Source of the DNA: Deltaproteobacteria bacterium RIFCSPHIGHO2_02_FULL_43_33
GTDB lineage: Bacteria; Desulfobacterota; GWC2-55-46; UBA9637
Direction of reading: 5' to 3'
Assembly: GCA_001798165.1 (NCBI GenBank)
Contig: MGRL01000050.1
Span: forward strand, 1-51,280
DNA length: 51,280 nucleotides
Shown: one piece after another, positions 25,864 to 44,755 of the stretch
Numbering within the stretch: position 1 is the first letter of the stretch
How the letters are laid out: the number at the start of each line of letters is the position of its first letter
The notes under the pieces: generated by a model
Databases searched by the model: none
Told to the model about the DNA's origin: nothing
The model's input: only the letters and a program-made list of their open reading frames with translations
Program-made: the position numbers and the translations under genes

Positions 25864-25867
25864 AATT

Positions 25868-26758
25868 ATGGAAACAGTGGTTAACTACACAGTCTTTCAC
25901 GTAATGCCATGGGGGCCTGCATATGCCCTCTACTTTTTCCTTATCGGCATGAGCGCAGGCGCGTTTATCTTGTCAATGCTTCCTCATGTATGCCCTCACG
26001 AAGAGAAATATATGCCATTAAGCAAAACTGCGTGGCTTATATCCTTTGTCCTTCTTTTAATAACAGGGCCGATACTTATACTTGACCTTACACAGCCGGC
26101 AAGATTTATACATCTCTTTTTCCCGAATTATATGCACATATCTTCACCGCTTATGTGGGGAACATTATTACTCCTTGGCATGGGATTATTCAGTATTCTC
26201 TATGGATGGGCATTATTCACAAAAAGTAAACAGGTAAGGCTCTTTGGCATGATAGGCGGCCTCTTTGCCCTCGGCCTTCCCCTATATTCAGGCTTTGATA
26301 TGGCGGTTCAGCCGGGGAGGCCTATATGGCACAGCGCTGTTATATCGCCATTATTTCTCATTCTTTCCTTATCATCCGGCGTAGGATTTGTAAGCCTTAT
26401 TGCATATTTAATAAATAAAGAGTCTCTTAACAATGAGCTATTGGAGGGAATAAAAAATATCCTCTTATTCTCTGCGGTAGCCACCTTTATGCTTCTCCTT
26501 TCCCAGTCTGTGGTGCTTGCGTATGGAGACAGTGAGGAATATGCCTCTCTTATGCTCATATATTCTCATTACGGCTTCCTTTACTGGGGTCTTGGCTGGC
26601 TCCTTGGCGCTATTGTACCGCTTGTCATACTTTTATCTCCAAGGTTTGGCGCCACTATTAATGGCATTGCCATAGCCTCTGCCCTTTTAGTGCTGGGCGC
26701 ATATAGCTTAAGGCATGTGATTCTCATATCAGGGCAGATTATACAGCAGGTTTTCTGA
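25868..26758 (+). CDS. NrfD/PsrC-type membrane anchor subunit
   Basis: The 296-residue protein has about eight transmembrane helices, among them AYALYFFLIGMSAGAFILSM, LLLLGMGLFSILYGWALF, GVGFVSLIAYLI and LGWLLGAIVPLVILL. NrfD/PsrC proteins have no haem; they exchange electrons with the quinone pool and anchor the complex to the membrane. TQPARFIHLFFPNYMHISSP after the second helix is a family-like segment. It sits between the ferredoxin and catalytic genes in the order B-C-A. Confidence 0.92.
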   Translation: METVVNYTVFHVMPWGPAYALYFFLIGMSAGAFILSMLPHVCPHEEKYMPLSKTAWLISFVLLLITGPILILDLTQPARFIHLFFPNYMHISSPLMWGTLLLLGMGLFSILYGWALFTKSKQVRLFGMIGGLFALGLPLYSGFDMAVQPGRPIWHSAVISPLFLILSLSSGVGFVSLIAYLINKESLNNELLEGIKNILLFSAVATFMLLLSQSVVLAYGDSEEYASLMLIYSHYGFLYWGLGWLLGAIVPLVILLSPRFGATINGIAIASALLVLGAYSLRHVILISGQIIQQVF

Positions 26759-26806
26759 AGTATGGCAAGCCCTGCATTATGAAACACCTTTTACAGGAGG
26801 TTAAAA

Positions 26807-29383
26807 ATGAAGATAAATAGGCGAAGCTTTTTAAAGCTTGGCGCTGCATCCGGCGCTGCTATGGCTGTGGCTCCGAATATATTAAAGGCCATGGAAACAG
26901 AATTAGGCGGTAAAGATTTTTCAGCTGCAACATTAACCGAGAGAACTTCAGTTCCCTATACGTGCCTGGTTTGCAATATAGAAGATGGAGGTATGGCATT
27001 TATAGAAGACGGCAGGATTGTAAAACTTGAAGGCAATCCGAAGCATGTTTCAACAAGAGGCAGGCTCTGCGCAAAAGGCAACTCCGGGATGTGGCATGTC
27101 TACGACCCTGATAGGATTTTATATCCTCTGCGAAGGACAGGGCCAAGGGGGAGCGGGCAGTGGAAAAGGATTTCCTGGGATGAGGCAATAGCAGAGGTTG
27201 CTGAAAAGATAAAGGTTGTTCTTGATAAAGGGCATCCCAATGAGATTATGTTCAAATGGGGGAGGGACAGGAGCGGCGGCGCCACAGGAAGATTCATGGC
27301 AACCCTTGGTACCAATACAGGCGTCAATCACACGTCCATCTGCGAGTCCAGCAAAAAGATAGGCATGCAGCCCACATGGGGGCCTGATATCGAAACACCT
27401 GACTTTGCCAAAACAAAATATATCTTGAACTTCGGCAGCAATATCCTTGAGGCAGCATATTTTCACAACCCGTATTCTCAAAGGATTTCAGAGGGGGTTG
27501 CAGAAAACATGGCAAAGCTTGTGACCTTTGATGTCCGACTCTCCAATACCGCAGGCCGTTCAGATGAGTGGTTCCCCATATTCCCGGCTACCGACGGCAT
27601 TGTTGCCTTAGCAATGGCAAATGTGATTATGCAGGAAGGCTTGGCAGACACGAATTTTATCAATGACTGGACAAACTACTCAGCAGATAAGCTATCTGCC
27701 TATCTAAAACAATACACGGCTGCAATGGCTGAAAAATACTCAGGCGTGCCTGCAAAGGATATCAGGAGAATTGCCATTGAATTTGCCTCTACAAAACCCG
27801 CAACTACCTACACTTATAGAGGGCCTGCAATGCACCTCTATGGCTCATACAATGAGAGGTGTATCATGCTCCTGCCAATAATTACAGGCAATATTGAGGT
27901 AAAGGGAGGTTACTGTCTTCCGAGGGGCATGGGATATGCCCAGCCCCAGCCTGCGCCGGAAGGCGGCAAAGAACCGAGTTATCTTTCCACGCCGCCTGAT
28001 TATCCATTGGCAGAGCATAAGGTAAGCCATCTTGTGCCGTTCTGGATAAAAGAGGGGAAACAGAAGATAAGCGTTTATTTCAGTTATATGCACTGTGAGG
28101 CATTTACCAATCCTGCTGCAAGTGTGTGGAGGGAGATGCTTCTGGATGAAAAGCTCATCCCGTTCAGCGTTACATTCTCCAATCAAATGAATGAGACAAC
28201 AAATATCATGGATATGGTTCTGCCTGACTGCAGCTACCTTGAAAGGCACGACCCGGAGAGTATGCCATCAAGCCTCTGGCCATGGCTCGGTATCAGACAA
28301 CCTGTCATAAAACCATTAGGAGAAGCAGTAGAATTTAGAGAGGTCTTAAAGAAGATAATCCACAAGATAGATCCTAACGGCAGCAAGGGCATGAAAAAAT
28401 ACTGGGAGTTTAAAGATGGAGAAGATTATCTCAAGAAACAGTTTGACAATATCCCCGGGCTTAAAGAGGCAGGCGGCTATAACTTCTTAAAGAAAAATGG
28501 CGTATGGCCCATATACGGCAAACTTGACCCTGCTACAGGGAAGATTGTAGGCAAGGACGGCATGGAGATAAAGCCGGAATACGGCCTCTACAAAAAAGAA
28601 GACAGCAATGGCAAGGTTGTGCTCCGCGGTAAAAAGTATAAGGGATTTGGGACTCCGGATGGAAAAATCAACCTTTATGCGCCAAGCTACGAAAAATATG
28701 GCTTTAACCCTTTGCCTACATTTAAAGCGCATCCCTGGCACTGGAATAAGGATGGCTCATCAAAATTAAAGAACGGTGAGATGATTATGACCACCTTTAA
28801 ATGGAATGTGCACACTCAAAGCAGAACCACAAATATAAAGTGGCTTAATGAGATAGTGCATTCTAACCCTGCATGGATAAATCCAAAGACAGCAGCGGAA
28901 AAAGGCATAAAGGATGGAGACTTAGTCAGAGTGACGAGCCCTGTGGGCTATATGGTGACGAAGGTGCGGGTGACAGAGGGTATACATCCAAAGGTTATTG
29001 CTGTTTCCAACACGTTGGGCATGAAATTCGGCAGGGTTGCTACAGCAAAGCCAAGAGACCCTGCGCCAATGTGGGAAGGCGTGCAAGACCAGGATGTTAA
29101 TGGAAATCTCTGGTGGAAGAGTACCGGCGTAAATCCAAATGACATTATCCCTGTTTCTGCAGACCCGATAGGCGGCGGCCAGGGGTGGTATGATACAGTT
29201 GTCATGGTTACCCCTGTACTGCCAGGAGATAAATTCGGCGATATACAGGCTGACAATAAGAAACATTATGAATTTTACAAAGAAACCATGCTATATGCTT
29301 ATACAGGCGATAAGCACAGGGAGATGCACCCGGAGGTAAAGGCAGGCAAACTTCCTCCGCCTGAACTCAAGAAAGGACATTAA
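26807..29383 (+). CDS. molybdopterin oxidoreductase catalytic subunit (PsrA/TtrA/ArrA/SrdA-related)
   Basis: The 858-residue protein has a Tat signal (RRSFLKLGAASGAAMAVAP), an Fe-S site, and the bis-MGD domains of the DMSO reductase family. The Fe-S motif is C53-x2-C56-x3-D60-x27-C88: Asp stands exactly where the third Cys is expected. NHTSICESSKK (Cys179) is the likely Mo-ligand segment, and ADEW-like DEWFPIFPATDGIVALAMANV and the C-terminal MIMTTFKWNVHTQSR / GDLVRVTSPVGYM follow the family. Sequence flavour is nearest to the polysulfide/tetrathionate/arsenate/selenate reductase branch. The substrate cannot be read from the sequence. It is periplasmic and should receive electrons from quinol via the B and C subunits. 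Confidence 0.9.
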   Translation: MKINRRSFLKLGAASGAAMAVAPNILKAMETELGGKDFSAATLTERTSVPYTCLVCNIEDGGMAFIEDGRIVKLEGNPKHVSTRGRLCAKGNSGMWHVYDPDRILYPLRRTGPRGSGQWKRISWDEAIAEVAEKIKVVLDKGHPNEIMFKWGRDRSGGATGRFMATLGTNTGVNHTSICESSKKIGMQPTWGPDIETPDFAKTKYILNFGSNILEAAYFHNPYSQRISEGVAENMAKLVTFDVRLSNTAGRSDEWFPIFPATDGIVALAMANVIMQEGLADTNFINDWTNYSADKLSAYLKQYTAAMAEKYSGVPAKDIRRIAIEFASTKPATTYTYRGPAMHLYGSYNERCIMLLPIITGNIEVKGGYCLPRGMGYAQPQPAPEGGKEPSYLSTPPDYPLAEHKVSHLVPFWIKEGKQKISVYFSYMHCEAFTNPAASVWREMLLDEKLIPFSVTFSNQMNETTNIMDMVLPDCSYLERHDPESMPSSLWPWLGIRQPVIKPLGEAVEFREVLKKIIHKIDPNGSKGMKKYWEFKDGEDYLKKQFDNIPGLKEAGGYNFLKKNGVWPIYGKLDPATGKIVGKDGMEIKPEYGLYKKEDSNGKVVLRGKKYKGFGTPDGKINLYAPSYEKYGFNPLPTFKAHPWHWNKDGSSKLKNGEMIMTTFKWNVHTQSRTTNIKWLNEIVHSNPAWINPKTAAEKGIKDGDLVRVTSPVGYMVTKVRVTEGIHPKVIAVSNTLGMKFGRVATAKPRDPAPMWEGVQDQDVNGNLWWKSTGVNPNDIIPVSADPIGGGQGWYDTVVMVTPVLPGDKFGDIQADNKKHYEFYKETMLYAYTGDKHREMHPEVKAGKLPPPELKKGH

Positions 29384-29413
29384 CCCAAAAATAGACTTTG
29401 ATTTTTGGGGAAA

Positions 29414-29531
29414 CCTGCAAGTTGCCTGCCAGACGAGGCAGAGGCCATTTTTGCGACGAGCCGTATATCACCACTACGGTGAGAAGCAAAAATGCGCCGA
29501 TAACGAAGTATGGCAGGCAAATCGCAGGCTT
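29414..29531. repeat. 118-nt imperfect hairpin after the catalytic gene
   Basis: Paired blocks include CCTGC/GCAGG, TTGCCTGCCA/TGGCAGGCAA, and CATTTTTGC/GCAAAAATG, with CCGTA/TACGG at the tip (29461-29478). A second, separate perfect 11-bp hairpin follows at 29533-29563 (TAAAATAGCGA...TCGCTATTTTA). Together they fill the first 180 nt beyond the operon's third gene. Confidence 0.75.
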
Positions 29532-29532
29532 G

Positions 29533-29563
29533 TAAAATAGCGAGGTTTTTAATCGCTATTTTA
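29533..29563. repeat. perfect 11-bp hairpin TAAAATAGCGA/TCGCTATTTTA
   Basis: Arms at 29533-29543 and 29553-29563 with a 9-nt T-rich loop. It follows the large hairpin and precedes the terminator-like structure at 29602. Confidence 0.7.
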
Positions 29564-29601
29564 CGGATTAACTTAAAGTTTTTTATCAAGTAGTCTGCAC
29601 A

Positions 29602-29640
29602 CAATGGGAGGCCTTAGAAAAGCCTCCCATTGTATTTGTA
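29602..29640 (+). terminator. terminator-like hairpin after the oxidoreductase genes
   Basis: CAATGGGAGGC (29602-29612) and GCCTCCCATTG (29622-29632) are perfect 11-bp arms with a 9-nt loop, followed by TATTTGTATT. The T-tract is interrupted, so termination may be partial, allowing some read-through into the downstream chaperone and regulator genes. Confidence 0.65.
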
Positions 29641-29686
29641 TTGCTTTAATATCGCCCATGAAATATAATGTTCCAAGAGGCAACAC

Positions 29687-29956
29687 ATGAAATATTTGCT
29701 TATTTTTTTAACCATGATAAGCCTTTCTGCCAGCAGTTACGCAGTGGGGGGCATGGGCAGCTCAAAGACCGTGAAAGATAAAAAAGGCGGCGCCGCAGTT
29801 GTTGAAAAACAATCCGGTGAATCAACAAAATCGGATAAACCAAAAGAGCGCCAAACCACGGCAGATGATTTATATTTTTCAGATTACCCAAAGTCGTTTG
29901 TTGTTCCAAAAGGCGTCTGTGAAACAAAAGAACCGGTAATGGTAATCGGCAAATGA
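29687..29956 (+). CDS. small exported protein upstream of TorD (89 aa)
   Basis: The product has a signal peptide (KYLLIFLTMISLSASSYA) and a mature part of about 70 residues that is rich in Lys, Ser and Gly, then DLYFSDYPKSFVVPKGVCETKEP. One Cys is present. No family is recognised. The stop codon overlaps the TorD start (ATGA), so they are translationally coupled and the protein is probably a periplasmic accessory of the oxidoreductase. GAGGCAAC lies just upstream of the ATG. Confidence 0.7.
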   Translation: MKYLLIFLTMISLSASSYAVGGMGSSKTVKDKKGGAAVVEKQSGESTKSDKPKERQTTADDLYFSDYPKSFVVPKGVCETKEPVMVIGK

Positions 29957-30615
29957 TAATGTCTGTCCAGACAATACAAGAGATGATAGAATACGCAAAT
30001 GCAAGAAGCGCTATTTATAAACTCCTTTCCACTACATTTACCAAAGAGCTTTCAAAAGAATCCTTAGAAATATTTCGTGGAAACAAATTAGCAGAAACCT
30101 TGAGAGATTTAGGCATAGATTTTGGAAATAATTTTTATACATGCGATGCAGAGGAATTAGTTAAAAAATTATCTGAAGAATATGCCGCATTATTCATCCT
30201 CCCAGGCGGTATAAATCCCACCGAGAGCGTTGCACGGTCCGGTCTTTATATGCAAGCCTTTGCCGGACAGACGCTGAAATTCTATAAGCAGTGCGGTTTT
30301 ATTTTATCGGATGATTTCAAAGGCTTTCCAGACCATATCGGCATTGAGCTTGAGTTTATGAGCCATCTATCCAAAAACGAGGCCATTACCTATAAAAATG
30401 GGGCAGAGGACGAAGCTAAGAAATGGAGTGCGCATCAAAAAATGTTTTTAGAAGAGCATCTTTCTCACTGGGCTATGGACCTTGCTAAAAATGTAGCTGC
30501 ATATACACAACAATCATTCTATAGAGAAATAGCGCATTTCTTATATGAATTTATTGGTGAAGAGACAAAAGAATTTGCAAGAGGAGCGGGGTATTCTGAT
30601 GGACAAACGGCTTGA
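29953..30615 (+). CDS. TorD/DmsD-family molybdoenzyme chaperone
   Basis: This 220-residue, all-helical protein should bind the Tat signal of the catalytic subunit and hold it until cofactor is inserted. Visible family features are the N-terminal ARSAIYKLLSTTFTKEL, the central ESVARSGLYMQAFAGQTLKFY and the DHIGIELEFMSHLSKNEA motif (the ExxPDHIxxELxF-like signature of TorD), then HLSHWAMDLAKNV. The alternative start at 29959 removes two residues. It overlaps the small exported protein by 4 nt and the Crp/Fnr gene by 17 nt. Confidence 0.92.
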   Translation: MIMSVQTIQEMIEYANARSAIYKLLSTTFTKELSKESLEIFRGNKLAETLRDLGIDFGNNFYTCDAEELVKKLSEEYAALFILPGGINPTESVARSGLYMQAFAGQTLKFYKQCGFILSDDFKGFPDHIGIELEFMSHLSKNEAITYKNGAEDEAKKWSAHQKMFLEEHLSHWAMDLAKNVAAYTQQSFYREIAHFLYEFIGEETKEFARGAGYSDGQTA

Positions 30616-31348
30616 TGCATCTCAAAAAATTAAACATAATCTGCCTTTACCTCAAGCATCAGTTTGCCTTTTATGTCATTGCCGAATCCAGGAAAACACC
30701 CTTTTTTCAGACCTTACAGATGAACAACTTGAGCTGTTTCAAGGGGTTGTTGCTACCTCACTTTATAAGAAAAGAGATGTAGTATTTGTTGAAGGCGAGC
30801 CATGCCCTGGTTTTTATGTTGTAAAGAGCGGCAGGATAAAACTCGTAAAAACCTCAAGGGATGGCAAGGAGCAGATTATAAAAATACTTCAGCCTGGCGA
30901 GCTTCTTGGCATGGAGACATTCTATAATGGCAAGAGCTATGCGAATACAGCAATGGCAATGGATGATTGCGAACTCTGCTTTATAGAAAAAGGGGCGTTT
31001 TTCAGGATAATTGAGGGACATCCTTCAATTGCAAAAAAGATAATCATCGCCTTAAGCAAAGAACTTGACCATGCCTATTCAAAGATAGGCAGCATGGGTC
31101 TGATGACCGCAAGGGAGAAGATGGGGCATCTCCTGTATACCCTTGCAACTGAATATGGGGTTAAAGAAGACAGCAAGATAAAATTAAATCTTTCTCTTTC
31201 ACGGCTTGAAATAGCAGAGCTTCTGGGGATAACGCAGGAGACAGCCATTAGGCTTTTAAAAAGCTTTAAAGATGAAGACATTATTGAAATAAAGCGGAAA
31301 GAGATTATAATTAAATCTCTTCCAAAACTGCAGGCATTGGGCGAGTAA
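30599..31348 (+). CDS. Crp/Fnr-family transcription regulator with N-terminal Cys cluster
   Basis: The 249-residue protein has a cyclic-nucleotide-binding-like sensor domain (about 38-150: VVFVEGEPCPGFYVVKSGRI, LQPGELLGMETFYNG) and a C-terminal HTH_Crp domain (LNLSLSRLEIAELLGITQET, AIRLLKSFKDEDIIEIK). The N-terminal CLLCHC (Cys23, 26, 28) and Cys70 could hold an Fe-S cluster as in FNR, although spacing differs from E. coli FNR. Start ATG 30599 follows GAGGAGCGGGG. Position behind the chaperone gene suggests it controls the oxidoreductase operon, likely in response to oxygen or redox state. Confidence 0.9.
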   Translation: MDKRLDASQKIKHNLPLPQASVCLLCHCRIQENTLFSDLTDEQLELFQGVVATSLYKKRDVVFVEGEPCPGFYVVKSGRIKLVKTSRDGKEQIIKILQPGELLGMETFYNGKSYANTAMAMDDCELCFIEKGAFFRIIEGHPSIAKKIIIALSKELDHAYSKIGSMGLMTAREKMGHLLYTLATEYGVKEDSKIKLNLSLSRLEIAELLGITQETAIRLLKSFKDEDIIEIKRKEIIIKSLPKLQALGE

Positions 31349-33977: not shown

Positions 33978-34709
33978 GTGCAAACCAATCCTATCGTTGA
34001 GGTAAAGGGTCTAACAAAAATCTTTAATAGCCTCAAGGCTGTGGACAATATCTCATTTGAGATGTATCCGGGTGAGATACTCGGCCTTTTAGGCCCAAAT
34101 GGGGCCGGTAAAACCACAACCCTACAGATGCTATTGGCCCTGACAACCCCTACATCAGGAGATATTAAGATTTTTGGATTAGACCTTCAATATCATAGAG
34201 AAAAAATCCTCCAATCTGTAAATTTTTCATCAAGCTATGTTGCTATGCCATATTCCCTTACTGTTATGGAAAACCTTATGGTCTTCGCAAGGCTTTATAA
34301 TGTAAAGAATCCGCAATCAAAGATATTAGAGCTTCTCAAAGACTTTGAGAGTGAATATCTAAAAGACAGGGCAGTGAGAAACCTTTCATCAGGCCAGATA
34401 ACCAGAGTCTGTCTTATAAAGGCGCTGTTAAGCGACCCCAAAATCTTATTCCTTGATGAGCCGACAGCAAGTCTTGACCCGGATATTTCAGATAAGACCA
34501 GAAGGCTTTTAAAAAAGATAAAAAAGGAAAAGGATATATCAATCCTCTATTCATCTCATAATATGAAAGAGATGGAGGAGATGAGCGACAGGATTATATT
34601 TCTGGATAAAGGGAGAATTATTGCTAAGGGCAGACCCGAAGAAGTGAGGGCTCAGTTTAAAGGGGCAAGCCTGGAAGATGTGTTCCTCAAGATAGCGAGG
34701 GGGATATGA
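33978..34709 (+). CDS. ABC transporter ATPase (ABC-2 type exporter)
   Basis: The 243-residue ATPase has Walker A LLGPNGAGKTTTLQMLLALT, the signature NLSSGQITRVCLIKALL, Walker B ILFLDEPTASLDP and switch LYSSHNMKEMEEM. The signature LSSGQ instead of LSGGQ is usual in CcmA/NatA-like exporters. Start is GTG at 33978 with AGAAGGG upstream. It overlaps the permease gene by 4 nt. The substrate is unknown; similar pairs export drugs, lipids or polysaccharides. The permease is broken (see next entry), so the system may not work. Confidence 0.93.
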   Translation: MQTNPIVEVKGLTKIFNSLKAVDNISFEMYPGEILGLLGPNGAGKTTTLQMLLALTTPTSGDIKIFGLDLQYHREKILQSVNFSSSYVAMPYSLTVMENLMVFARLYNVKNPQSKILELLKDFESEYLKDRAVRNLSSGQITRVCLIKALLSDPKILFLDEPTASLDPDISDKTRRLLKKIKKEKDISILYSSHNMKEMEEMSDRIIFLDKGRIIAKGRPEEVRAQFKGASLEDVFLKIARGI

Positions 34710-35496
34710 AAATACACAGGATTGTGGCGCTTGTCATCCGTCATCTCTATCTCTATAAAAGAAGCATTCCACGATTAATGGAGGTGTTCTATTGGCCGTT
34801 TTTGGATTTAGTGGTCTGGGGTTTTATAACCATCTATCTTAGTAAGTTTAAAGAGACATTACCGAGCTTTATAGCCTTTTTGCTCGGGGCATTGATTTTA
34901 TGGGATATCCTGTTCAGATCTCAGCAAGGATTATCCGTATCCTTTTTGGAAGATATGTGGGCAAGGAATCTCCTGAATATCTTTGTAAGCCCTATCAGTC
35001 CCATTGAATACATATTTGCATTGATGCTTGTAAGCATTGTAAAGCTTTTACTTGCAAGCGTTGTCATGGTTTTATTGCATGGCTCTTTTATTCCTTCAAT
35101 ATTTTTTTAATCGGCATTGCCCTCATACCGCTGATAATCAACCTGGTGATTATGGGGTGGGCAATGGGGGTTGTTACTATGGCCTTAATCTTGAGGTTGG
35201 GTCAGGAGGCCGAAGTTCTGGCTTGGGCGGTTGCCTTTCTTTTCCAGCCGGTATCGGCGGTATTTTACCCGGTGTCTGTGCTTCCCCCTTTTCTTAAGAC
35301 AATTGCCCGATACATACCATCATCCCATATCTTTGAAGGTATGAGGGGAGTGGTTGCCGGCGGCGGCTTTCCAGCCACTGAACTTGTTTGGGCAACCTCA
35401 TTGAATATGCTATACCTGACAGGGGCGTTGATATTTTTTTATTGGAATTTTGGAGTTGTCAGGAAAAAGGGGCTTTTGGCAAAGGTGGGGGAATAG
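34706..35496 (+). pseudogene. ABC-2 type permease, -1 frameshift at a T-run
   Basis: The first frame (34706-35110) encodes four to five helices (FLDLVVWGFITIYL, FIAFLLGALILWDILF, FALMLVSIVKLLLAS) and stops in the T7 run at 35102-35108. Adding one T continues as IFFLIGIALIPLIINLVIMG and then WAMGVVTMALILRLGQEAEV, FYPVSVLPPFLKTIARYIPS and a last helix to 35496, giving a normal permease of 263 residues. So a single base is missing in a homopolymer. It may be an assembly error, transcriptional slippage correction, or a recent inactivating mutation. Confidence 0.85.
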
Positions 35497-36633: not shown

Positions 36634-38418
36634 TTAATTATTTTCTTTTGCTGCCACCGACTCTCCAATCTGTATTATTGCCTCTCCAATAACTATTCCT
36701 TCTCTTATTACTAATATAGCATTTTTGTCCGCATTTGTTGACCGTTTATTAAAAGTTATAATTTTATTTTCACTGTCCAATTCATCTCCAGAAACATTTA
36801 CCTTTACACCAACATTTCCGTTGACATTGGTTTTTACATCTATAATCTCCAAAGTATCCTTTGGAGTGACAGATATAATGTCTCCGTTGGCATACCACCG
36901 CTGGCCCCCCTGACTGTGTTTCACCACGATGTAGTTGAGCTTTGGTTCTTCTATATCTACAAATATTTCATCAATCCTCTTACCTATATAATTTATTGCA
37001 ACGGGATACTGTGAGCCTTTCCCATCTTTTGAATATTTTATCCACATATCCTTTGCCGTATTTATAGTATAGCCTCTGTCTTCTCCTGTGTTATTCATTT
37101 TGTTGCCTACAAAACCGAGAAAATTTACCGCAATGTCTCTTGCGTTAACACCCTCTGCGACAACATCTAAAAGCTTTAATTTATCGCCTTTTATAATCTT
37201 GAGATGCTCTTCATGAGTAAGCACCTGTCTGGAGCCGTTTACTTCTAATATGAGATATATAAATCTTGGAGATTTTGCAGGTGGTTGGAGGTTTGTTTTC
37301 ATTGCATCATTGTCATGCGATTCTGCTATGGAAATGCTTACCTCGCCGCACTTAAAGCTGTCTTTTCGCACCACAGCCTTTGTTGGTATGTTTATCTCAA
37401 ATTCTTTTTGAAAATCATTTGCAGTTCCCATACCCAGAATATCAATACTTAAACCGCGCTCATAATTTGCCTCAATCTGGACGACCTTTAACCGGTCCCC
37501 TTTTTTAACTTTGATATCCTCGCCGTCTCTGATTATAATGTTTTGTGAACCATTGAGTGATACTACCAGATATTTTAATCTCGGCGTATCCAGAGCCACT
37601 TTTGGATTTTCAGGCATGATGCCGAATTCATCCATAAATGCGTTGATGACCATAGTCTGCATCCTGACCTTGGCCTCAATATCCTTTATCTCTTTGGATG
37701 TCTCTATGCCGAATGCGGGTATGTCGTAAGTGGCAAGGGCGTAAAAGCTGGCAGATTTTCTCTGGTCAGCGTGGGGTGTGTTATTTTCAAATGTCCGGTG
37801 ATTGTTGAACCGGAAATGATAGTCCTGATTGTCTAACTTTTCATTGACGCGGCTTGCTATTTTTCTCGCCAAATCTCCGAGATGAATATCCGCGCCTTTC
37901 TCTTCTGAATAATAAACATCCGCGTCCGCAATAATGGATTGTCCGAAACGCATGGGATTTTTCATATCGCTCTCCCGTGTTTCCCGGAAAAAACCGGAAC
38001 CCTCGTGCAGATTCAGAAAAAAATCGCTCTGCGCCATCAACCCCTTGAGTATCTCTACAATTTTATCTTCATAATATTCCTTGCTGTTTATTGCAAACCG
38101 CCGGTTCATATCCCAGTTGATGGCCCTTTTATGCTCAATGATGGATAGAAAATTTGCCCGCGGCACAACAATCAAATTCCCCTTGCGCAGAGCCATATCT
38201 GCATACAGGTCTGCGGAGAGATACCCGCCCGGTTCATCGCCCTGTATGCCGCCGATGATTATCAAGGTTTTGCCCTTTTCCGCGCCATATATTTTATAGA
38301 CATTCAACTCGTAGTCTGTGTCTTTAAAATAGACATCGTGAACGGTTTTGCAAAAACCTTGAGATGAAAATGTAAGGAGGAATGCTGTAGCGAGAATGAT
38401 ATAGAGTTTTTTTCTCAT
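36634..38418 (-). CDS. M99-family (Csd4-like) carboxypeptidase with three C-terminal repeat domains
   Basis: The 594-residue exported protein (signal peptide about 1-23) has an M14-like zinc carboxypeptidase domain. The metal motif is GGIQGDEPGG: Gln59 and Glu62, with His138 in FFLNLHEGSGFF. Gln in place of the first His is the hallmark of family M99, whose founder, Helicobacter Csd4, trims peptidoglycan tripeptides to dipeptides and sets helical cell shape. After residue about 290 come three tandem beta domains, each beginning P(R/K)LxYxVV/IxxNGS (RLKYLVVSLNGSQN, RFIYLILEVNGSRQ, KLNYIVVKHSQGGQ). They may bind the cell wall or partner proteins. It is the last gene of the bactofilin operon and overlaps the preceding gene by 1 nt. 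Confidence 0.85.
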   Translation of the reverse strand: MRKKLYIILATAFLLTFSSQGFCKTVHDVYFKDTDYELNVYKIYGAEKGKTLIIIGGIQGDEPGGYLSADLYADMALRKGNLIVVPRANFLSIIEHKRAINWDMNRRFAINSKEYYEDKIVEILKGLMAQSDFFLNLHEGSGFFRETRESDMKNPMRFGQSIIADADVYYSEEKGADIHLGDLARKIASRVNEKLDNQDYHFRFNNHRTFENNTPHADQRKSASFYALATYDIPAFGIETSKEIKDIEAKVRMQTMVINAFMDEFGIMPENPKVALDTPRLKYLVVSLNGSQNIIIRDGEDIKVKKGDRLKVVQIEANYERGLSIDILGMGTANDFQKEFEINIPTKAVVRKDSFKCGEVSISIAESHDNDAMKTNLQPPAKSPRFIYLILEVNGSRQVLTHEEHLKIIKGDKLKLLDVVAEGVNARDIAVNFLGFVGNKMNNTGEDRGYTINTAKDMWIKYSKDGKGSQYPVAINYIGKRIDEIFVDIEEPKLNYIVVKHSQGGQRWYANGDIISVTPKDTLEIIDVKTNVNGNVGVKVNVSGDELDSENKIITFNKRSTNADKNAILVIREGIVIGEAIIQIGESVAAKENN

Positions 38419-39143
38419 TACAGGTCCACCTCTTTCTTTATAAGGAGGTTTCCACTTGCAGAATACACAAATGTAATTACCTTGTTTATTGGGTTATTCA
38501 TGGAATATGGCAACGTGTATTCCATACGCTTATGCCATTTTATAGAAAATCTGCTGCCCTTTTTAAAATCAAGAGGCGCTCCGTCTTTTATCCCCGCGTC
38601 TTCAGGAAAACAAAAGTATGTTCCTCCATAGTCTCCAACTATTAGAACATACCCATTTACAATTGTGCCGGAAGTATCTTCTTTAACAATATCAAAGGAA
38701 ATAATAAGCCGACTATGGTCATCTGTATTCTTGGCCTGAAAGCCTTGGAGAGAAATATGTTCAATATCTTTTATTTCTTCGCGATTGGTAACATCTTCAT
38801 TTTTTGCCACAGGTTTCACTTCAAGAAAATCCTTCCTGCTTGTTTGTGATTTTACCGTACTATCTATTGCAGACCTGGAAGTTGCTTCGGGTTTGATGGT
38901 TGTTTCTAACCCTTTCAGTTTTCCTTCTAACGCCTCCTTTTCCACGGTGAGAGAGACAAAGTCTTTTGTCAATCTATCGCGGTCAAAGTAAAGTTTTATA
39001 GAAAAGATTGTGGATATTAGGGCAACAAATATGAGAATAGAAATGGCGGCTATTAATAATTTTAGGCTTGTTATAGAAAATTCCAGTGTGTTTATCTTTC
39101 CGGTGCTATCCTTAAAATACATTACATTTATAGTTCGCTTCAT
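38418..39143 (-). CDS. single-pass membrane protein with coiled coil and shared C-terminal domain
   Basis: The 241-residue protein has a short cytoplasmic N-terminus, one transmembrane helix (LLIAAISILIFVALISTIFS at about 30-50), a coiled coil (LTVEKEALEGKLKGLETTI) and a periplasmic C-terminal domain at about 130-241. That domain (GAPLDFKKGSRFSIKWHK, then KVITFVYSASGNLLIKKEVD) is clearly homologous to the C-terminus of the L,D-transpeptidase encoded next. Overlaps of 4 nt upstream and 1 nt downstream couple it to its neighbours. I see no enzyme motif. By topology and context it could be a scaffold linking cytoplasmic bactofilin to periplasmic enzymes, a role like that proposed for Helicobacter Csd5/Csd7. 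Confidence 0.75.
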   Translation of the reverse strand: MKRTINVMYFKDSTGKINTLEFSITSLKLLIAAISILIFVALISTIFSIKLYFDRDRLTKDFVSLTVEKEALEGKLKGLETTIKPEATSRSAIDSTVKSQTSRKDFLEVKPVAKNEDVTNREEIKDIEHISLQGFQAKNTDDHSRLIISFDIVKEDTSGTIVNGYVLIVGDYGGTYFCFPEDAGIKDGAPLDFKKGSRFSIKWHKRMEYTLPYSMNNPINKVITFVYSASGNLLIKKEVDL

Positions 39144-40858
39144 TGTTTTGTTTGTATTGGGAATTTTTTATTGAGCAGCAAATCGCCCTCTTTTGAATAA
39201 ACCAGCACAGTAACAATATCAGCTCCCTTTTCTTCAAAGCCGCCCTTTACTATCTTAAAGCGCCTTATGGAGAACCATTCTCCTTTTCTAAAATCCTTTG
39301 GAACACCCTGCTTAATAGTCATCGGTGGATATGTGCTGTAGCGAACCTCGTTATCACCTTTATTTTCTGCTATGATTGCCAACCGTCCTGAAATCTTATA
39401 TCTCTCGCCAATTTTATTTACCAATTTGAATTTGACCTTGTTAGCGCTATTGCCTCCATCTATTGTAAAATCTTCTATATCTATTGCTGCTGTCTTTGAT
39501 GGAGAAGCAGACTCTTCTTGACCCTGCTGAGGAGGGTGGCCATTTACCCCCTTAGAAGCTTCCTCCGTTGAGGATGAATTATTATTGATAGAAACATCTG
39601 AGCTTCTAACGGGGTTTACAAAGCTCTGGGTTGTTTGTGGCAGCCTGTCTGCTTTTGCCAGAGACAGATGAGAAGATGCCTGGCTTTCAAATTTAGCCTG
39701 CTGCACGGGAAGGTTGTTGATGCTATTCTGCTCAGAAGAAGTTTCAACCTTTGCCAAAGTTGGTTTTCTATACGCAGCATATCTCTGCGCGATATTGGAC
39801 GGTTTTTGTGCGGGGAGAGGGGCCCACTCCTCTCCAACAATCTCCCAACGTTCATCCTCTTTAATCAGATATAACCTTTTTATTCCTACACTTGCCAGAT
39901 TATTATTTTTATAACGTTGTATAAATGAAGCAACAACATGATTAGTGTGACGCAGGATTCTGATATCAGAGAGAGAAACATTGATATATGAATATTGATG
40001 GTTCAGCGTATTTTTATATTTTTTCCATCCACGCCAATCCATGCCATTAGCTCTAAAACTCTTGGAGTAACTGTCCATATAGTTTTCTAAATCTTTCCCT
40101 TCCCAGCTTGTCTGCCATTTTTCAACAAACCGAGCTATTTCTTGACGAGTGGCTTTAATTTTTTCAAGCGAATCGTGCTCAATCTTATCCACAATTACCA
40201 TAGGCGTTGTCTGAAGCTTTATATATTCTGCAAGCTCCACAATATCTTCATTGGCAGCTACAACACACCCTCTCGTATCATAAGGCTTCAACGGCCGTGT
40301 CGGCTGATTGGTCGCATGAAGCCATATTCCATTTCCATTTTTGTGAGAAATTGCATCTATGAAGTTCGGATAATTTATAGGCAGAGCCATTACACCATAT
40401 TCAGGAAGAAGTTCTCTGTCATCCTTGACGAGCGTAAAGAAATAAATGCCTTCAGGAGTTTTACGGTCTCCCTGGGCTGTCTTGTTTCCTTGGCGCTGGC
40501 CTGTAGTAACATGAAAGGTTTTTATTAACTTATAATCTCCGTCATAGAGGTATAGTTTTTGAGAGGATTTTTCTACTATAATGGCATAATCTCCAAGACC
40601 TATCAACGAAGCAGGGGCAGTGGATTGTGATAGCAAGTCAGAGACGTTCTTATCAGCAAAATTATTATTTTCTAATTTTGCCTGAATTTCTCCTGAGAAG
40701 GCAGGGCCGTCAAGCGCTATAAGCCGACACAGGAAAAAAATTGATGCCGATCCTATGAGAAGTTTTAAATTTATGAGCTTGGCAAGATTATCTACCGGTT
40801 TAGCAAGCCATAATCTATAAAGTATTCTTTTTAAACAGTGAGCAAACAACAGCTTCAT
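39140..40858 (-). CDS. L,D-transpeptidase/carboxypeptidase, YkuD + NTF2-like (Csd6 type)
   Basis: The 572-residue protein has an N-terminal membrane segment (about 30-50). The YkuD catalytic domain spans about 88-226 with IIVEKSSQKLYLYDGDYKLI, ISHKNGNGIWLHATNQP (His181) and RPLKPYDTRGCVVAANEDI (Cys198). An NTF2-like domain follows (about 236-345: FVEKWQTSWEGKDLENYMDS, RWEIVGEEW), an arrangement known from Helicobacter Csd6. A low-complexity linker (about 350-455) includes VNPVRSS and GHPPQQGQE, both repeat-like. The last 115 residues (KDFRKGEWFSIRRFKIV, IVTVLVYSKEGDLLLNKKFP) match the neighbouring membrane protein. It follows the bactofilin gene by 6 nt. Confidence 0.85.
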   Translation of the reverse strand: MKLLFAHCLKRILYRLWLAKPVDNLAKLINLKLLIGSASIFFLCRLIALDGPAFSGEIQAKLENNNFADKNVSDLLSQSTAPASLIGLGDYAIIVEKSSQKLYLYDGDYKLIKTFHVTTGQRQGNKTAQGDRKTPEGIYFFTLVKDDRELLPEYGVMALPINYPNFIDAISHKNGNGIWLHATNQPTRPLKPYDTRGCVVAANEDIVELAEYIKLQTTPMVIVDKIEHDSLEKIKATRQEIARFVEKWQTSWEGKDLENYMDSYSKSFRANGMDWRGWKKYKNTLNHQYSYINVSLSDIRILRHTNHVVASFIQRYKNNNLASVGIKRLYLIKEDERWEIVGEEWAPLPAQKPSNIAQRYAAYRKPTLAKVETSSEQNSINNLPVQQAKFESQASSHLSLAKADRLPQTTQSFVNPVRSSDVSINNNSSSTEEASKGVNGHPPQQGQEESASPSKTAAIDIEDFTIDGGNSANKVKFKLVNKIGERYKISGRLAIIAENKGDNEVRYSTYPPMTIKQGVPKDFRKGEWFSIRRFKIVKGGFEEKGADIVTVLVYSKEGDLLLNKKFPIQTKQ

Positions 40859-40864
40859 GTATCT

Positions 40865-41281
40865 TTATAATACCTCCATCTTTTTACCCTCGGCCTCCTT
40901 TAAAAAGCCGCTGGTGCTTGCTTTTCTCTCGCCTCCCATCTCGCAGGTTCCTTCAAATATTACACCCTCGCCAATAATAAGATTTGTTGTTTTAATATTT
41001 CCATACATCTTGGCAGGCGCCCTTAATTCTATTCTGCTTTTTCCCTCTATCTCTCCCCTGAATTCTCCGCTTACAACAGCAATATCAACATGAACCTTTC
41101 CCTCCATAACAGCGCCTTCGCCAACGATAAGGGTGCCGCTTATTGCGTCAATTTCGCCATTAAACCCCCCGTCAACTCTGACAGAGCCTTCAAAGCCCAA
41201 TTTTCCGGTAATGGTCACGCCTTTTCCAATAAATCCATTCATCTGAGTAGAATCTCCTCTTTTTTTATCCTTTTCAAACAT
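40865..41281 (-). CDS. bactofilin
   Basis: The 138-residue protein has the bactofilin beta-helix core: GFIGKGVTITGKLGFEGSVR, VDGGFNGEIDAISGTLIVGE, GKVHVDIAVVSGEFRGEIEG and KMYGNIKTTNLIIGEGVIFE, a six-residue periodicity of hydrophobic positions with Gly turns. Short disordered ends flank it (EKDKKRGDSTQM and ERKASTSGF). Bactofilins form nucleotide-free filaments on the inner membrane and recruit cell-wall enzymes; Helicobacter CcmA is the best-known shape-determining case. It is the first gene of a four-gene operon with cell-wall hydrolases, which supports that role. Confidence 0.94.
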   Translation of the reverse strand: MFEKDKKRGDSTQMNGFIGKGVTITGKLGFEGSVRVDGGFNGEIDAISGTLIVGEGAVMEGKVHVDIAVVSGEFRGEIEGKSRIELRAPAKMYGNIKTTNLIIGEGVIFEGTCEMGGERKASTSGFLKEAEGKKMEVL

Positions 41282-41316: not shown

Positions 41317-42348
41317 TCAAACCGCTTTTGGTATTTTAGCTTTATATAGTCTCTTATACTTTGCTTGCTTCTCAAATATTCTCAATTGTTTTTCCGCGCC
41401 TATGGCATCATACGGGACTGTATCTTCTTCCAACGAGTTGAGCCTTGTCTTCGCTATCGCAATGTATTCCTTATTTATATCAATGCCGATAAATTTTCTC
41501 CCTAATTTTTTTGCCGCAACCAAAGTGGTGCCGCTGCCGGCAAAGGGATCAAGCACAACCGATTCAGGCGAATAGGTTGTTAAATTGATAATGTATTCGC
41601 ACAAACTTAACGGCTTCACGGTTCTGTGCGCGTTAAAATCCCCTTTTTCTTTTTTATCCGGCTTTGAAATCAAGAAACATTTATCAACCACTTCATTTAT
41701 TGCGTCTGTTGAAACCACATTGGCTGGAAACATATCCTGACCTATTTTTACCTGCGTATTTAACAAGCCCACATGATATTTTCTGAAATTCTCCAAAAAT
41801 GTCCCTTCCGGCTCTTTTTGCGCCATGACAATCGGCTCGAAGCAAGACTTGATTTGCGGCGTTTTCCAGCCGTTCAGTTGTTTTTTTAAATTTGTTTTCG
41901 CTCGTTCACTCTCGTTCAATTTATCAATAAAATGATTCAGGCTCATTGCTTTGGGCTGATTTTGCGTGTAAAGCCAGATAAAGCAATCTCGTATCAAAAA
42001 TCCTGCGTCATCAATGGCAGAAACCATCCTATGATATAATCTTGGACTAGAAAAGGAAAAGAAGAACCCGCCGGGTTTCAAAACCCTTAAGACCTGTTTT
42101 GAAATCTTGTAATACCACTCGTAAAAGTTTTTCCCTTGTTCCCTGTCAAATTTCATTCCAGCAGGCAATGATTTGACAACATGATGATATTTCGTGCTTG
42201 CAACCTTCTTTTCATCCCATCCATTATCCATCTTGTCCAGAAAATACGGCGGGTCGGTCAAAACCAAATCAATACTGTTATCGTCAAATCCTGACAATAT
42301 TTGCAACGAATCGCCGTGAATGATTTTATTCAGATGCTCACCATTCAT
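41317..42348 (-). CDS. DNA methyltransferase (beta-class, N6-adenine or N4-cytosine)
   Basis: The 343-residue enzyme has catalytic motif IV DLVLTDPPYFLDKM (residues 28-40) before the SAM-binding motif LDPFAGSGTTLVAAKKLGRK near residue 265, the order of beta-class enzymes. GKNFYEWYYKISKQVLRVL and PGGFFFSFSSPRLYHRMV follow motif IV. The central 130 residues should hold the target recognition region. It overlaps the HNH nuclease gene by 11 nt. The target sequence is unknown. Confidence 0.92.
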   Translation of the reverse strand: MNGEHLNKIIHGDSLQILSGFDDNSIDLVLTDPPYFLDKMDNGWDEKKVASTKYHHVVKSLPAGMKFDREQGKNFYEWYYKISKQVLRVLKPGGFFFSFSSPRLYHRMVSAIDDAGFLIRDCFIWLYTQNQPKAMSLNHFIDKLNESERAKTNLKKQLNGWKTPQIKSCFEPIVMAQKEPEGTFLENFRKYHVGLLNTQVKIGQDMFPANVVSTDAINEVVDKCFLISKPDKKEKGDFNAHRTVKPLSLCEYIINLTTYSPESVVLDPFAGSGTTLVAAKKLGRKFIGIDINKEYIAIAKTRLNSLEEDTVPYDAIGAEKQLRIFEKQAKYKRLYKAKIPKAV

Positions 42349-43051
42349 TGGGGTCTTGTCCTTTGAATTCGTTGTAGAGAATTTTGTAAATTCCTCTTTT
42401 TACTTTTTCGCTGCACTTCTTAATGATTGCCGGTTTCGCAATCCCTCTCACCCGTCCTCTTTCATCAAATACCCAAAAATCTCTGTATGCGCGATTGCAT
42501 TTTTGACACTGAGGGATAATGTTTCCTTCAGCCAAAGGTTTTGATGAGTCAATATGCGCTTTTTGCAGTTTTGTTATGGTGTTCGGATAGTGGATATTTT
42601 TCTTTCCTTCTTCAGAGCCGCAGGTGGCGCAGCGGTTTCCATATTGCTGCTTTATGTTATCCCAATTTCCGGTTGCTTCAATTCTGTGCCCTTTGAAATG
42701 AGGATACGGTCTTTCCAGAGTAATCAACCGGTATTCTCCGCTTTTCTTCACATGAACATTGTCTCTGCCGCCTGCTGAAATAAACCATCCCTTTTGCGCT
42801 CCGAGATGTCTTGCCTGTTGAACATCATTGATTTTGGGATAAAATTTTCTGATGAATTCCGTGAGTTCGTCTTTCATCACAGAAACCGTGCTTGGATAAA
42901 ACCTCGCAAGATAAACCAGCACAAGGGCATCCTTAACATAATTTCCATCAACATCGTTCAGCTTTGGCAGCTTAACTCCATGTTTGCTTAGATATTTTTC
43001 ATGATAGTCTTTAACGATTTGATATACTTCTTCAATTTCTCTATCTGTCAT
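42338..43051 (-). CDS. HNH endonuclease, probable restriction enzyme of a type II system
   Basis: The 237-residue protein has an N-terminal helical part (SKHGVKLPKLNDVDGNYVKD) and a C-terminal HNH domain with zinc-binding CATCGSEEGK and CQKCNRAYRD, and catalytic AHIDSSKPL and NIIPQCQKCN. Overlap with the methyltransferase gene and the same strand make it the likely cognate restriction enzyme. I cannot assign the recognition sequence. The pair could also protect or guide a mobile segment. It is 12 nt from the parB start on the same strand, so the pair may be inserted into the parB 3' side. Confidence 0.8.
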   Translation of the reverse strand: MTDREIEEVYQIVKDYHEKYLSKHGVKLPKLNDVDGNYVKDALVLVYLARFYPSTVSVMKDELTEFIRKFYPKINDVQQARHLGAQKGWFISAGGRDNVHVKKSGEYRLITLERPYPHFKGHRIEATGNWDNIKQQYGNRCATCGSEEGKKNIHYPNTITKLQKAHIDSSKPLAEGNIIPQCQKCNRAYRDFWVFDERGRVRGIAKPAIIKKCSEKVKRGIYKILYNEFKGQDPNEW

Positions 43052-43063
43052 ATAAAGTCCTTA

Positions 43064-43918
43064 TTATGCCTTGATATTCCTCAACATCTCCAATATCCGC
43101 TCCAACTCCTCATAAGAGTAAAACTCTACCTCAACCCGGCCTTTCCCCTTTTTATCCTTTACTAAAACCCTTGTTCCAAATATATTTCTTAATTCATCCT
43201 CAAGAGATTTTATATGAGCATTCTTTTTTTGGCTGGAGCTGCTGCTCTTTTTATCGCCCTTTGTGTAATATTTAGCTATTTCTTCGGTCTCTCTAACTGA
43301 TAATTCTTTTTGTATTATCCTTCTGCATATCTCCCTTTGCGTTGCATGACCGTCAAGGCTAAGCAACACCTTTGCATGGCCCATTGAAATTGCGCCATTT
43401 TTTAATTCCTCCTTTACCTCTGGCGGGAGTTTGAGCAGTCTTAAATAATTTGCAACAGTAGCCCTTTCCTTGCCGACCCTTTTTGCCGTCTCATCCTGGG
43501 AAAGCCCAAATCTATCTATAAGATTTTTATACGCCTCTGCCTCTTCCATTGCGTTTAAATCTGCCCTTTGGATATTTTCTATAATTGCCAACTCAAGGCT
43601 TTCTTCATCTGTAGCATCCCTTACAACAACAGGAACTTCCTTAAGGCCTGCAAGTTTTGCTGCCCTCCATCTTCGCTCACCCGCTATAAGCTCATAGCCA
43701 TTCCCTGATCTTCTGACCAGAAGAGGCTCTATAACACCTTTTTCTTTTATTGAGTCAGCAAGTTCCTGCAGGTGTTGCTCATTAAAGTCTTTTCTTGGCT
43801 GAACAATGCTTGGAGTTATTTCATTGATAGAGCATTGAAGATAGTTATCCCCTATTTTTTCAGGAGTCTGAATCAATGCGCTCAGGCCTTTGCCGAGGGC
43901 CTTTCTCTTTGCTAACAT
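43064..43918 (-). CDS. parB: chromosome partitioning protein ParB
   Basis: This 284-residue ParB/Spo0J protein loads on parS as a CTP-dependent DNA clamp. The CTPase domain has QPRKDFNEQHLQELADSIKE and the GERRWRAAKLAGL motif; the helix-turn-helix is LSQDETAKRVGKERATVANY, then LRLLKLPPEVKEEL. The C-terminal dimer domain (RVEVEFYSYEELERILEML) is preceded by a Ser/Lys linker. It is 10 nt after parA, and two parS sites lie within 3.5 kb. Confidence 0.97.
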   Translation of the reverse strand: MLAKRKALGKGLSALIQTPEKIGDNYLQCSINEITPSIVQPRKDFNEQHLQELADSIKEKGVIEPLLVRRSGNGYELIAGERRWRAAKLAGLKEVPVVVRDATDEESLELAIIENIQRADLNAMEEAEAYKNLIDRFGLSQDETAKRVGKERATVANYLRLLKLPPEVKEELKNGAISMGHAKVLLSLDGHATQREICRRIIQKELSVRETEEIAKYYTKGDKKSSSSSQKKNAHIKSLEDELRNIFGTRVLVKDKKGKGRVEVEFYSYEELERILEMLRNIKA

Positions 43919-43928
43919 AGCTAACCCC

Positions 43929-44690
43929 TTAATTTTTCAATAGAATTTCTTTTGCCAGCTCAATATAGCTTAATGCGCCCTTAGATGTTACATCGTAAAG
44001 TATTACAGGTTTGCCAAAGCTTGGGCTTTCGCTTAATCTTACATTCCTTGGTATTACTGTCTTAAAAACCTTTTCGGCAAAATGTGCCTTTACCTCTTCT
44101 GCCACCTGATGGGCAAGGTTATTCCTTGGGTCAAACATGGTAAGCAATATGCCTTCTATCTCAAGACCTGGGTTAAGATTTTTCTTTATAAGGCCAACGG
44201 TCTTCATAAGTTGAGATAATCCTTCCAGCGCATAATATTCACACTGCATGGGGATAAGAACTGAATCTGCTGCGGTCAAGGCGTTTACTGTTAAAAGGCT
44301 TAATGAAGGCGGGCAATCAATAAGGATATAATCATAATCATTCGCTACTTCTTTCAAGGCATCTTTTAACCTTATCTCTCTTGTCGGATCATCTATCAAC
44401 TCTACCTCGGCGCCGATGAGGTCTATAGTGGAAGGGGCTGTCCTAAGAAATGAAATCTCCGTATCTTTAATAACTTCTTTTAGTCCTTTATGCTGGATTA
44501 TTGCCTGATATATGCTGGCTTTTGAGCCGTTCTTTGCAATGCCCACACCGCTGGTGGTATTGCCCTGAGGGTCAAAATCAACAAGGAGAACCCTCTTCTC
44601 TGCTACAGCGAGAGAGGCAGAAAGATTTACAGCTGTGGTTGTTTTGCCCACGCCGCCTTTTTGATTTGCTATGCTAATTATTTTTGCCAT
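43929..44690 (-). CDS. parA: chromosome partitioning ATPase ParA (Soj)
   Basis: The 253-residue Walker-type ATPase begins MAKIISIANQKGGVGKTTTA, with the deviant Walker A KGGVGKTT, LLVDFDPQGNTTSGVG and YILIDCPPSLSLLTVNAL. ParA moves ParB-parS complexes along the nucleoid. The start chosen is ATG 44690-44688 because the conserved sequence begins there; a TTG 13 codons upstream (44729) adds residues not seen in the family. Upstream, parS site 1 lies in the probable promoter region, which fits autoregulation. Confidence 0.97.
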   Translation of the reverse strand: MAKIISIANQKGGVGKTTTAVNLSASLAVAEKRVLLVDFDPQGNTTSGVGIAKNGSKASIYQAIIQHKGLKEVIKDTEISFLRTAPSTIDLIGAEVELIDDPTREIRLKDALKEVANDYDYILIDCPPSLSLLTVNALTAADSVLIPMQCEYYALEGLSQLMKTVGLIKKNLNPGLEIEGILLTMFDPRNNLAHQVAEEVKAHFAEKVFKTVIPRNVRLSESPSFGKPVILYDVTSKGALSYIELAKEILLKN

Positions 44691-44755
44691 CTTTTGGAGG
44701 CAGTTTATCACACCATTTTTGTTTTTCAAGGAAAAAATTGACTGAAGAGATTAAA

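What the first reader, a model, noticed from the sequence alone, without database searches (positions are those of the whole stretch)
36634..41281. Compact cell-shape operon: bactofilin, Csd6-like, membrane coiled coil, Csd4-like M99
Four overlapping or adjacent genes encode a bactofilin, a YkuD+NTF2 enzyme like Helicobacter Csd6, a single-pass coiled-coil protein and an M99 carboxypeptidase with the Csd4-type Gln/Glu/His zinc site (Gln59, Glu62, His138). In Helicobacter these parts are scattered; here they are one operon with translational coupling. It suggests a cell-curvature or helical-shape module in a non-Helicobacter lineage, with the membrane protein as the missing connector between filament and enzymes.
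Basis: partly seen in the sequence, partly recalled or inferred. Interest (0 to 1): 0.65.

Follow-up and report, generated by a model that had tools for sequence, protein, structure and literature searches.

The report
Bactofilin operon trimming cell-wall peptides
Four co-expressed genes encode a cytoskeletal filament protein, two enzymes that shorten cell-wall peptides step by step, and an unnamed membrane protein that probably fastens the filament to them; this set recurs in many uncultured bacteria and may be a portable way of bending cells.

Summary
Window 36634-41281 (minus strand) carries bactofilin, a YkuD+NTF2 enzyme, a one-pass coiled-coil membrane protein (here CONN) and an M99 carboxypeptidase, with ATGA/TAATG overlaps. 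The enzyme is closest to Bd1075, the Bdellovibrio curvature LD-carboxypeptidase, not Csd6. M99 keeps all six Csd4 active-site residues checked.

Enzyme-CONN-M99 occurs in about 45 loci, mostly in the window's phylum, also in Nitrospirota. Bactofilin lies upstream, downstream, or beside CONN where M99 is absent. All 55 genomes in which I counted a CONN gene have a bactofilin, against 192 of 339 others.

CONN belongs to no Pfam or NCBIfam family. Its N-terminal beta-hairpin+TM matches that of M23 peptidases, some bactofilin-linked (permutation control 0/100). In Rhodospirillum LmdC the equivalent hairpin is needed for bactofilin-dependent recruitment. CONN's C-terminal beta-sandwich also ends the enzyme in this lineage and one Nitrospirota genome, and is not an SH3 domain as in Csd5.

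Best reading: CONN is a new adaptor linking bactofilin filaments to tetra->tri->dipeptide trimming. The adaptor role is a prediction; curvature is inferred and host morphology unknown. Hairpin-type M23s also occur in two draft genomes without detected bactofilin, so the hairpin alone proves nothing.

The parts
40865..41281 (-). Bactofilin, 138 aa, begins MFEKDKK (Phe2, Lys4, Lys7 as in the BacA membrane-targeting peptide)
   Evidence: Pfam Bactofilin 3.5e-24; sequence; BacA residues from PMC12448750; the only bactofilin in this genome
39140..40858 (-). LD-carboxypeptidase-like enzyme, 572 aa: N-terminal hydrophobic segment, YkuD domain (about 90-222; His181, Cys198), NTF2 domain (241-344; Trp345 and Tyr316 match Bd1075 Trp303 and Tyr274), disordered linker (372-454), CONN-like beta-sandwich (459-567)
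   Evidence: residue matching to Bd1075 from the alignment and PMC8938487
38418..39143 (-). CONN, 241 aa: beta-hairpin (4-10/17-23), one long helix 24-82 (TM plus coiled coil), disordered linker (88-117), C-terminal beta-sandwich (about 120-240)
   Evidence: AlphaFold2 pLDDT about 84-97 for the folded parts; no Pfam or NCBIfam family
39158..39490 (-). C-terminal beta-sandwich of the YkuD enzyme, homologous to the CONN C-terminal domain
   Evidence: BLASTP E 2e-6; CONN profile hits this stretch at 8e-27 in the genome search (the profile's own rows include the close relatives); same strand order in both models
36634..38418 (-). M99 carboxypeptidase, 594 aa: signal peptide, catalytic domain (about 42-266; Q59, E62, R98, R106, H138, E239), then what read as three beta-rich domains
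   Evidence: the three-domain reading of the C-terminal half is from the sequence, not modelled
39140..39143 (-). ATGA overlap of the enzyme stop and CONN start (translational coupling expected)
   Evidence: sequence; short overlaps at this junction in most triads, although ORF starts were taken mechanically
38416..38420 (-). TAATG overlap of the CONN stop and M99 start
   Evidence: sequence
43064..44729 (-). parB and parA, upstream neighbours (parB directly precedes bactofilin in G002 and G003)

Best explanation
The operon encodes a bactofilin-guided peptidoglycan-trimming module. Bactofilin polymerises on the inner face of the membrane. CONN spans the membrane; its cytoplasmic beta-hairpin binds the filament, and its periplasmic coiled coil and beta-sandwich concentrate the two periplasmic enzymes at that patch. 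The Bd1075-like enzyme removes D-Ala4 (tetrapeptide to tripeptide) and M99 then removes mDAP (tripeptide to dipeptide). Local loss of cross-linkable stems changes wall growth on one side and curves the cell. Shown computationally: gene content, conserved linkage, catalytic residues, the hairpin-TM-sandwich architecture and its sharing with M23 peptidases, and the restriction of CONN genes to genomes with bactofilin. Inferred: the binding partners, the order of catalysis and the effect on shape.
For: Enzyme-CONN-M99 on one strand in about 45 loci with different flanks (parB-bactofilin, purB, ruvB). CONN and M99 co-occur across 394 genomes of the phylum (p about 1e-16). Bactofilin lies within a few genes of CONN in 23 genomes and on either side, including CONN-bactofilin pairs without M99 (L186, L194, L188) and five-gene sets with an M23 peptidase (L079, L166). 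55/55 genomes counted as having a CONN gene have bactofilin against 192/339 others (p 5e-13). CONN hairpin profile matches hairpin-type M23 peptidases: hhalign P 4.7e-5 for the hairpin alone, 94% with the TM, nothing without the hairpin; 0 of 100 column permutations reach the score. The CONN profile itself pulled out M23 peptidases through the hairpin-TM stretch. The LmdC cytoplasmic region binds BacA in Hyphomonas, and the Rhodospirillum LmdC hairpin is needed for recruitment (PMC10945521). All six Csd4 residues checked are kept in 70 triad-type M99s except Gln in 67/70; YkuD His and Cys in 65/67.
Against: No physical interaction or phenotype was tested. Hairpin-type M23s occur in G005 and G006, draft genomes in which no bactofilin was found, so the hairpin alone does not imply bactofilin binding. 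CONN is missing in G004 and G008 although bactofilin, enzyme and M99 remain adjacent, and in G010 (short contig), so trimming does not always need it. More than half of the triads have no bactofilin gene in the fetched stretch. The 394 genomes are related by descent, so the p-values overstate independence; the presence counts rest on profile hits that were only partly inspected.
Confidence: 0.57

Rival explanations
1. CONN is a membrane adaptor for the two carboxypeptidases, but its hairpin binds something other than bactofilin (for example a part of the elongation machinery); bactofilin is a frequent but indirect neighbour.
For: Hairpin-type M23s occur in two draft genomes without a detected bactofilin; many triads have no adjacent bactofilin.
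Against: 55/55 genomes with a counted CONN gene have bactofilin, and direct CONN-bactofilin pairs occur without the enzymes. LmdC precedent for a bactofilin-recruited hairpin.
Confidence: 0.2
2. The trimming pair serves general wall maintenance, recycling or protection from cross-linking, with no effect on shape.
For: No morphology is known for any host; the triad often stands beside housekeeping genes (purB, ruvB).
Against: The solved homologues of both enzymes (Bd1075, Csd6, Pgp2, Csd4) are all shape determinants, and bactofilin linkage recurs.
Confidence: 0.13
3. The YkuD protein is an L,D-transpeptidase or a YafK/DpaA-like amidase rather than an LD-carboxypeptidase.
For: YkuD domains have several activities; a weak NCBIfam hit to DpaA/YafK (9e-5, far below cut-off).
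Against: Full-length YkuD+NTF2 match to Bd1075 (TM 0.80), an LD-carboxypeptidase (PMC8938487); pairing with a DL-carboxypeptidase that needs tripeptides as substrate.
Confidence: 0.08
4. The bactofilin belongs to ParABS chromosome organisation, as BacNOP in Myxococcus, and the enzymes are bystanders.
For: parA-parB directly precede bactofilin in G002 and G003.
Against: In other families bactofilin follows M99 or sits beside CONN with no parB seen in the fetched stretch.
Confidence: 0.06

Closest known systems
Bd1075 of Bdellovibrio bacteriovorus (LD-carboxypeptidase, cell curvature; PDB 7O21)
   Same: YkuD+NTF2 architecture, catalytic His/Cys, Val at the Bd1075 Val158 position, Trp and Tyr at the NTF2 positions Trp303 and Tyr274
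   Different: Here followed by a linker and a CONN-like beta-sandwich and encoded with bactofilin, CONN and M99; the Bd1075 paper as searched mentions no operon
Csd4 of Helicobacter pylori (M99 DL-carboxypeptidase)
   Same: Catalytic domain and all six residues checked
   Different: Longer C-terminal half with what looks like an extra beta-rich domain; encoded beside the LD-carboxypeptidase
LmdC (bactofilin-linked M23 endopeptidase of Hyphomonas and Rhodospirillum)
   Same: Cytoplasmic beta-hairpin, single TM, coiled coil, gene next to bactofilin; the hairpin profile of M23 peptidases found here matches CONN
   Different: CONN has no catalytic domain; a beta-sandwich replaces M23 and the enzymes are separate proteins. 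LmdC's own sequence was not in the comparison
Csd5 of Helicobacter pylori
   Same: Bitopic non-enzymatic protein; its cytoplasmic N-terminus contacts the bactofilin CcmA (PMC9507126)
   Different: Csd5 has a periplasmic SH3 domain; CONN has an Ig-like beta-sandwich closest to ApaG, and no SH3 structure is among the best matches

Membership tests
Peptidase family M99 (Csd4) | QxxE..H metal site, Arg86/Arg94, Glu222 | tested here: met
   Q59, E62, H138, R98, R106, E239; invariant in 70 triad-type M99s except Q in 67/70
Peptidase family M99 (Csd4) | DL-carboxypeptidase activity on muramyl tripeptide | not testable with these tools
   needs assay
Csd6/Pgp2/Bd1075 LD-carboxypeptidases | YkuD catalytic His/Cys plus NTF2 domain | tested here: met
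Csd6/Pgp2/Bd1075 LD-carboxypeptidases | Bd1075-type NTF2 pocket with Trp303 and Tyr274 | tested here: met
   W345 and Y316 here; W/F/Y at the first in 58/67, Y/F at the second in 57/67 homologues
Csd6/Pgp2/Bd1075 LD-carboxypeptidases | tetrapeptide to tripeptide cleavage | not testable with these tools
   needs assay
Bactofilin | Bactofilin domain (Pfam PF04519) | tested here: met
   PF04519 3.5e-24, above cut-off
LmdC-type bactofilin clients | cytoplasmic beta-hairpin before a single TM | tested here: met
   AlphaFold2; hhalign against hairpin-type M23 peptidases with permutation control
LmdC-type bactofilin clients | M23 peptidase domain | tested here: not met
   C-terminal domain is a beta-sandwich with no M23 match; CONN is not an LmdC
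LmdC-type bactofilin clients | direct binding to bactofilin | not testable with these tools
   needs biolayer interferometry or co-localisation
Csd5 connector | periplasmic SH3 domain | tested here: not met
   best PDB match of the CONN model is ApaG, an Ig-like beta-sandwich; no SH3 domain in the list

The most novel reading that the evidence does not exclude
CONN founds a widespread, unnamed family of bactofilin adaptors: a modular hairpin-TM anchor, shared with M23 peptidases, that plugs different periplasmic payloads (an endopeptidase, or an LD/DL-carboxypeptidase pair recruited through a beta-sandwich) into bactofilin filaments, giving a mobile curvature cassette across several phyla.
Probability: 0.5. 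Interest if true: 0.72.

Novelty: new variant of a known kind. Interest (0 to 1): 0.6.

Why it matters
How a cytoplasmic bactofilin filament directs periplasmic carboxypeptidases is not settled; in Helicobacter, Csd5 and Csd7 are known contacts, but I found no account of how Csd4 or Csd6 are placed. This operon suggests a compact answer: one adaptor, two consecutive trimming enzymes and one filament, probably in one transcript and in many lineages. It gives a specific peptide (CONN 1-24) and a specific domain (the beta-sandwich shared by CONN and the LD-carboxypeptidase) to test.

Tried and rejected
CONN as a local duplication of the enzyme's C-terminal domain: rejected as the sole origin, because CONN occurs widely where the enzyme has a second NTF2 repeat instead of that domain; more likely the enzyme gained the domain. 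CONN as a Csd5 homologue: no SH3 match, no family hits. CONN as an M23 relative: shares only the hairpin-TM stretch. Five of the 62 genomes hit by the CONN profile match only through the N-terminal half and lack a triad; three were fetched and are M23 peptidases, so all five were removed, as were two (G004, G008) whose hit is the enzyme's C-terminal domain, leaving 55. Several other hits cover only the C-terminal half; those fetched (L186, L187, L188, L190, L191, L194) did carry a hairpin-TM N-terminus. Literature searches on Csd4, Csd6, M99 and bactofilin with cluster or taxon terms found no description of this cluster in the held library, which lacks most subscription journals. First M23 motif scan failed through a wrong pattern. 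Bactofilin-CONN complex prediction was not possible with single-chain folding.

Full report
Observation. Pfam supports all but CONN, which has no Pfam or NCBIfam family. The genome is a 2.19 Mb assembly of 126 contigs with this as its only bactofilin.

Enzymes. The YkuD protein matches Bd1075, the LD-carboxypeptidase that curves Bdellovibrio, at E 1.5e-58 and TM 0.80, well ahead of Csd6 and Pgp2. It keeps the catalytic His/Cys and, by my residue matching to the alignment, the Bd1075 NTF2 residues Trp303 and Tyr274; the Bd1075 paper tested this NTF2 pocket as a localisation determinant. M99 keeps the Csd4 metal, arginine and glutamate residues. From the known activities of Bd1075 and Csd4, the pair should convert tetrapeptides to tripeptides and then to dipeptides.

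Conservation. The exact four-gene order occurs in the four genomes of this family that carry CONN and in a Magnetobacteriaceae MAG, L079, where a hairpin-type M23 peptidase precedes bactofilin. Enzyme-CONN-M99 occurs in about 45 loci, with CONN-like ORFs in five more recognised only by eye. Flanks differ (parB-bactofilin, purB, ruvB), so the triad is kept through rearrangement. Bactofilin is downstream of M99 in several families, is paired directly with CONN where M99 is absent (L186, L188, L194), and sits in five-gene sets with an M23 peptidase (L079, L166). Deferribacteraceae have enzyme-M99 without CONN (L075, L077). A separate, M99-only group has a divergent M99 that scores much closer to the Pfam model; it forms its own clade. 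In the M99 tree the window's order groups with the two Nitrospirota loci (SH-aLRT 96, quick method), which fits transfer between phyla but does not prove it.

Co-occurrence. Over 394 genomes of the phylum: M99 in 71, CONN profile hits in 62, bactofilin in 247. Five CONN hits match only through the N-terminal half without a triad; three of these were fetched and are M23 peptidases. Two more (G004, G008) are the enzyme's C-terminal domain. Without these seven, 55 remain, all in genomes with bactofilin against 192/339 others; 35 also have M99. Five M99 genomes lack bactofilin and all five lack CONN. Genomes are related, so these p-values are guides only; at genus level the uncorrected counts were 42/42 against 115/203.

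CONN anatomy. AlphaFold2 (21 aligned rows) gives a beta-hairpin 4-10/17-23, one helix 24-82 covering TM and coiled coil, a disordered linker and a confident beta-sandwich. Best PDB match is ApaG (E 5.8e-4), then GM2-activator, NPC2 and Fn3-like domains. The sandwich is homologous to the end of the enzyme in this order and in L079 (BLASTP 2e-6; profile hits; same strand order). Elsewhere the enzyme mostly has a second NTF2 repeat there.

Hairpin. A pre-TM hairpin-like stretch is recognisable in nearly all CONN sequences. Its profile matches the pre-TM stretch of hairpin-type M23 peptidases: P 4.7e-5 alone, 94% probability with the TM, none without the hairpin. None of 100 column permutations reached the real score; for hairpin+TM the permuted maximum was 31.8 against 38.8, for the hairpin alone 9.4 against 21.1. 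In Hyphomonas the LmdC cytoplasmic region binds BacA, and in Rhodospirillum its hairpin is needed for recruitment (PMC10945521). Against over-reading this: hairpin-type M23s occur in G005 and G006, where no bactofilin was found.

Bactofilin begins MFEKDKK, with Phe2, Lys4 and Lys7 as in the BacA membrane-targeting peptide (PMC12448750).

Conclusion. A bactofilin-guided trimming module with a probable new adaptor. Architecture, linkage and conservation are shown computationally; filament binding, enzyme recruitment and curvature are inferred. Host morphology could not be tested.

Noticed in passing
window 41317-43051; L020/L064: An N6/N4 DNA methylase and an HNH protein lie between parB and bactofilin here; the same-genus genome has methylase ORFs there and a further insert (methylase-like ORFs) between M99 and ilvE, while G002 and G003 have parB directly followed by bactofilin. 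Likely restriction-modification islands beside the shape operon.
   Followed up: partly
window 34706-35496: ABC-2 type permease appears split into two ORFs in different frames (34706-35110 and 35146-35496): frameshift or assembly error.
   Followed up: no
window 25138-31348: FeS protein, NrfD-like, molybdopterin oxidoreductase and TorD-like chaperone genes followed by a Crp-family regulator; from the sequence looks like a sulfur-compound or DMSO-type reductase operon.
   Followed up: no
L110-L127: Family f49 and some other genomes carry a divergent M99 with no enzyme, CONN or bactofilin found in the fetched flanks; it scores far better against the Pfam M99 model (E to 1e-90) and forms its own clade.
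   Followed up: partly
L068, L070, L072-L078, L128-L168: The YkuD enzyme in most triads ends in a second NTF2-like repeat where the window's enzyme has the CONN-like beta-sandwich: a domain swap at the same position (second repeat shown for L068-L078; the later loci judged by length only).
   Followed up: partly
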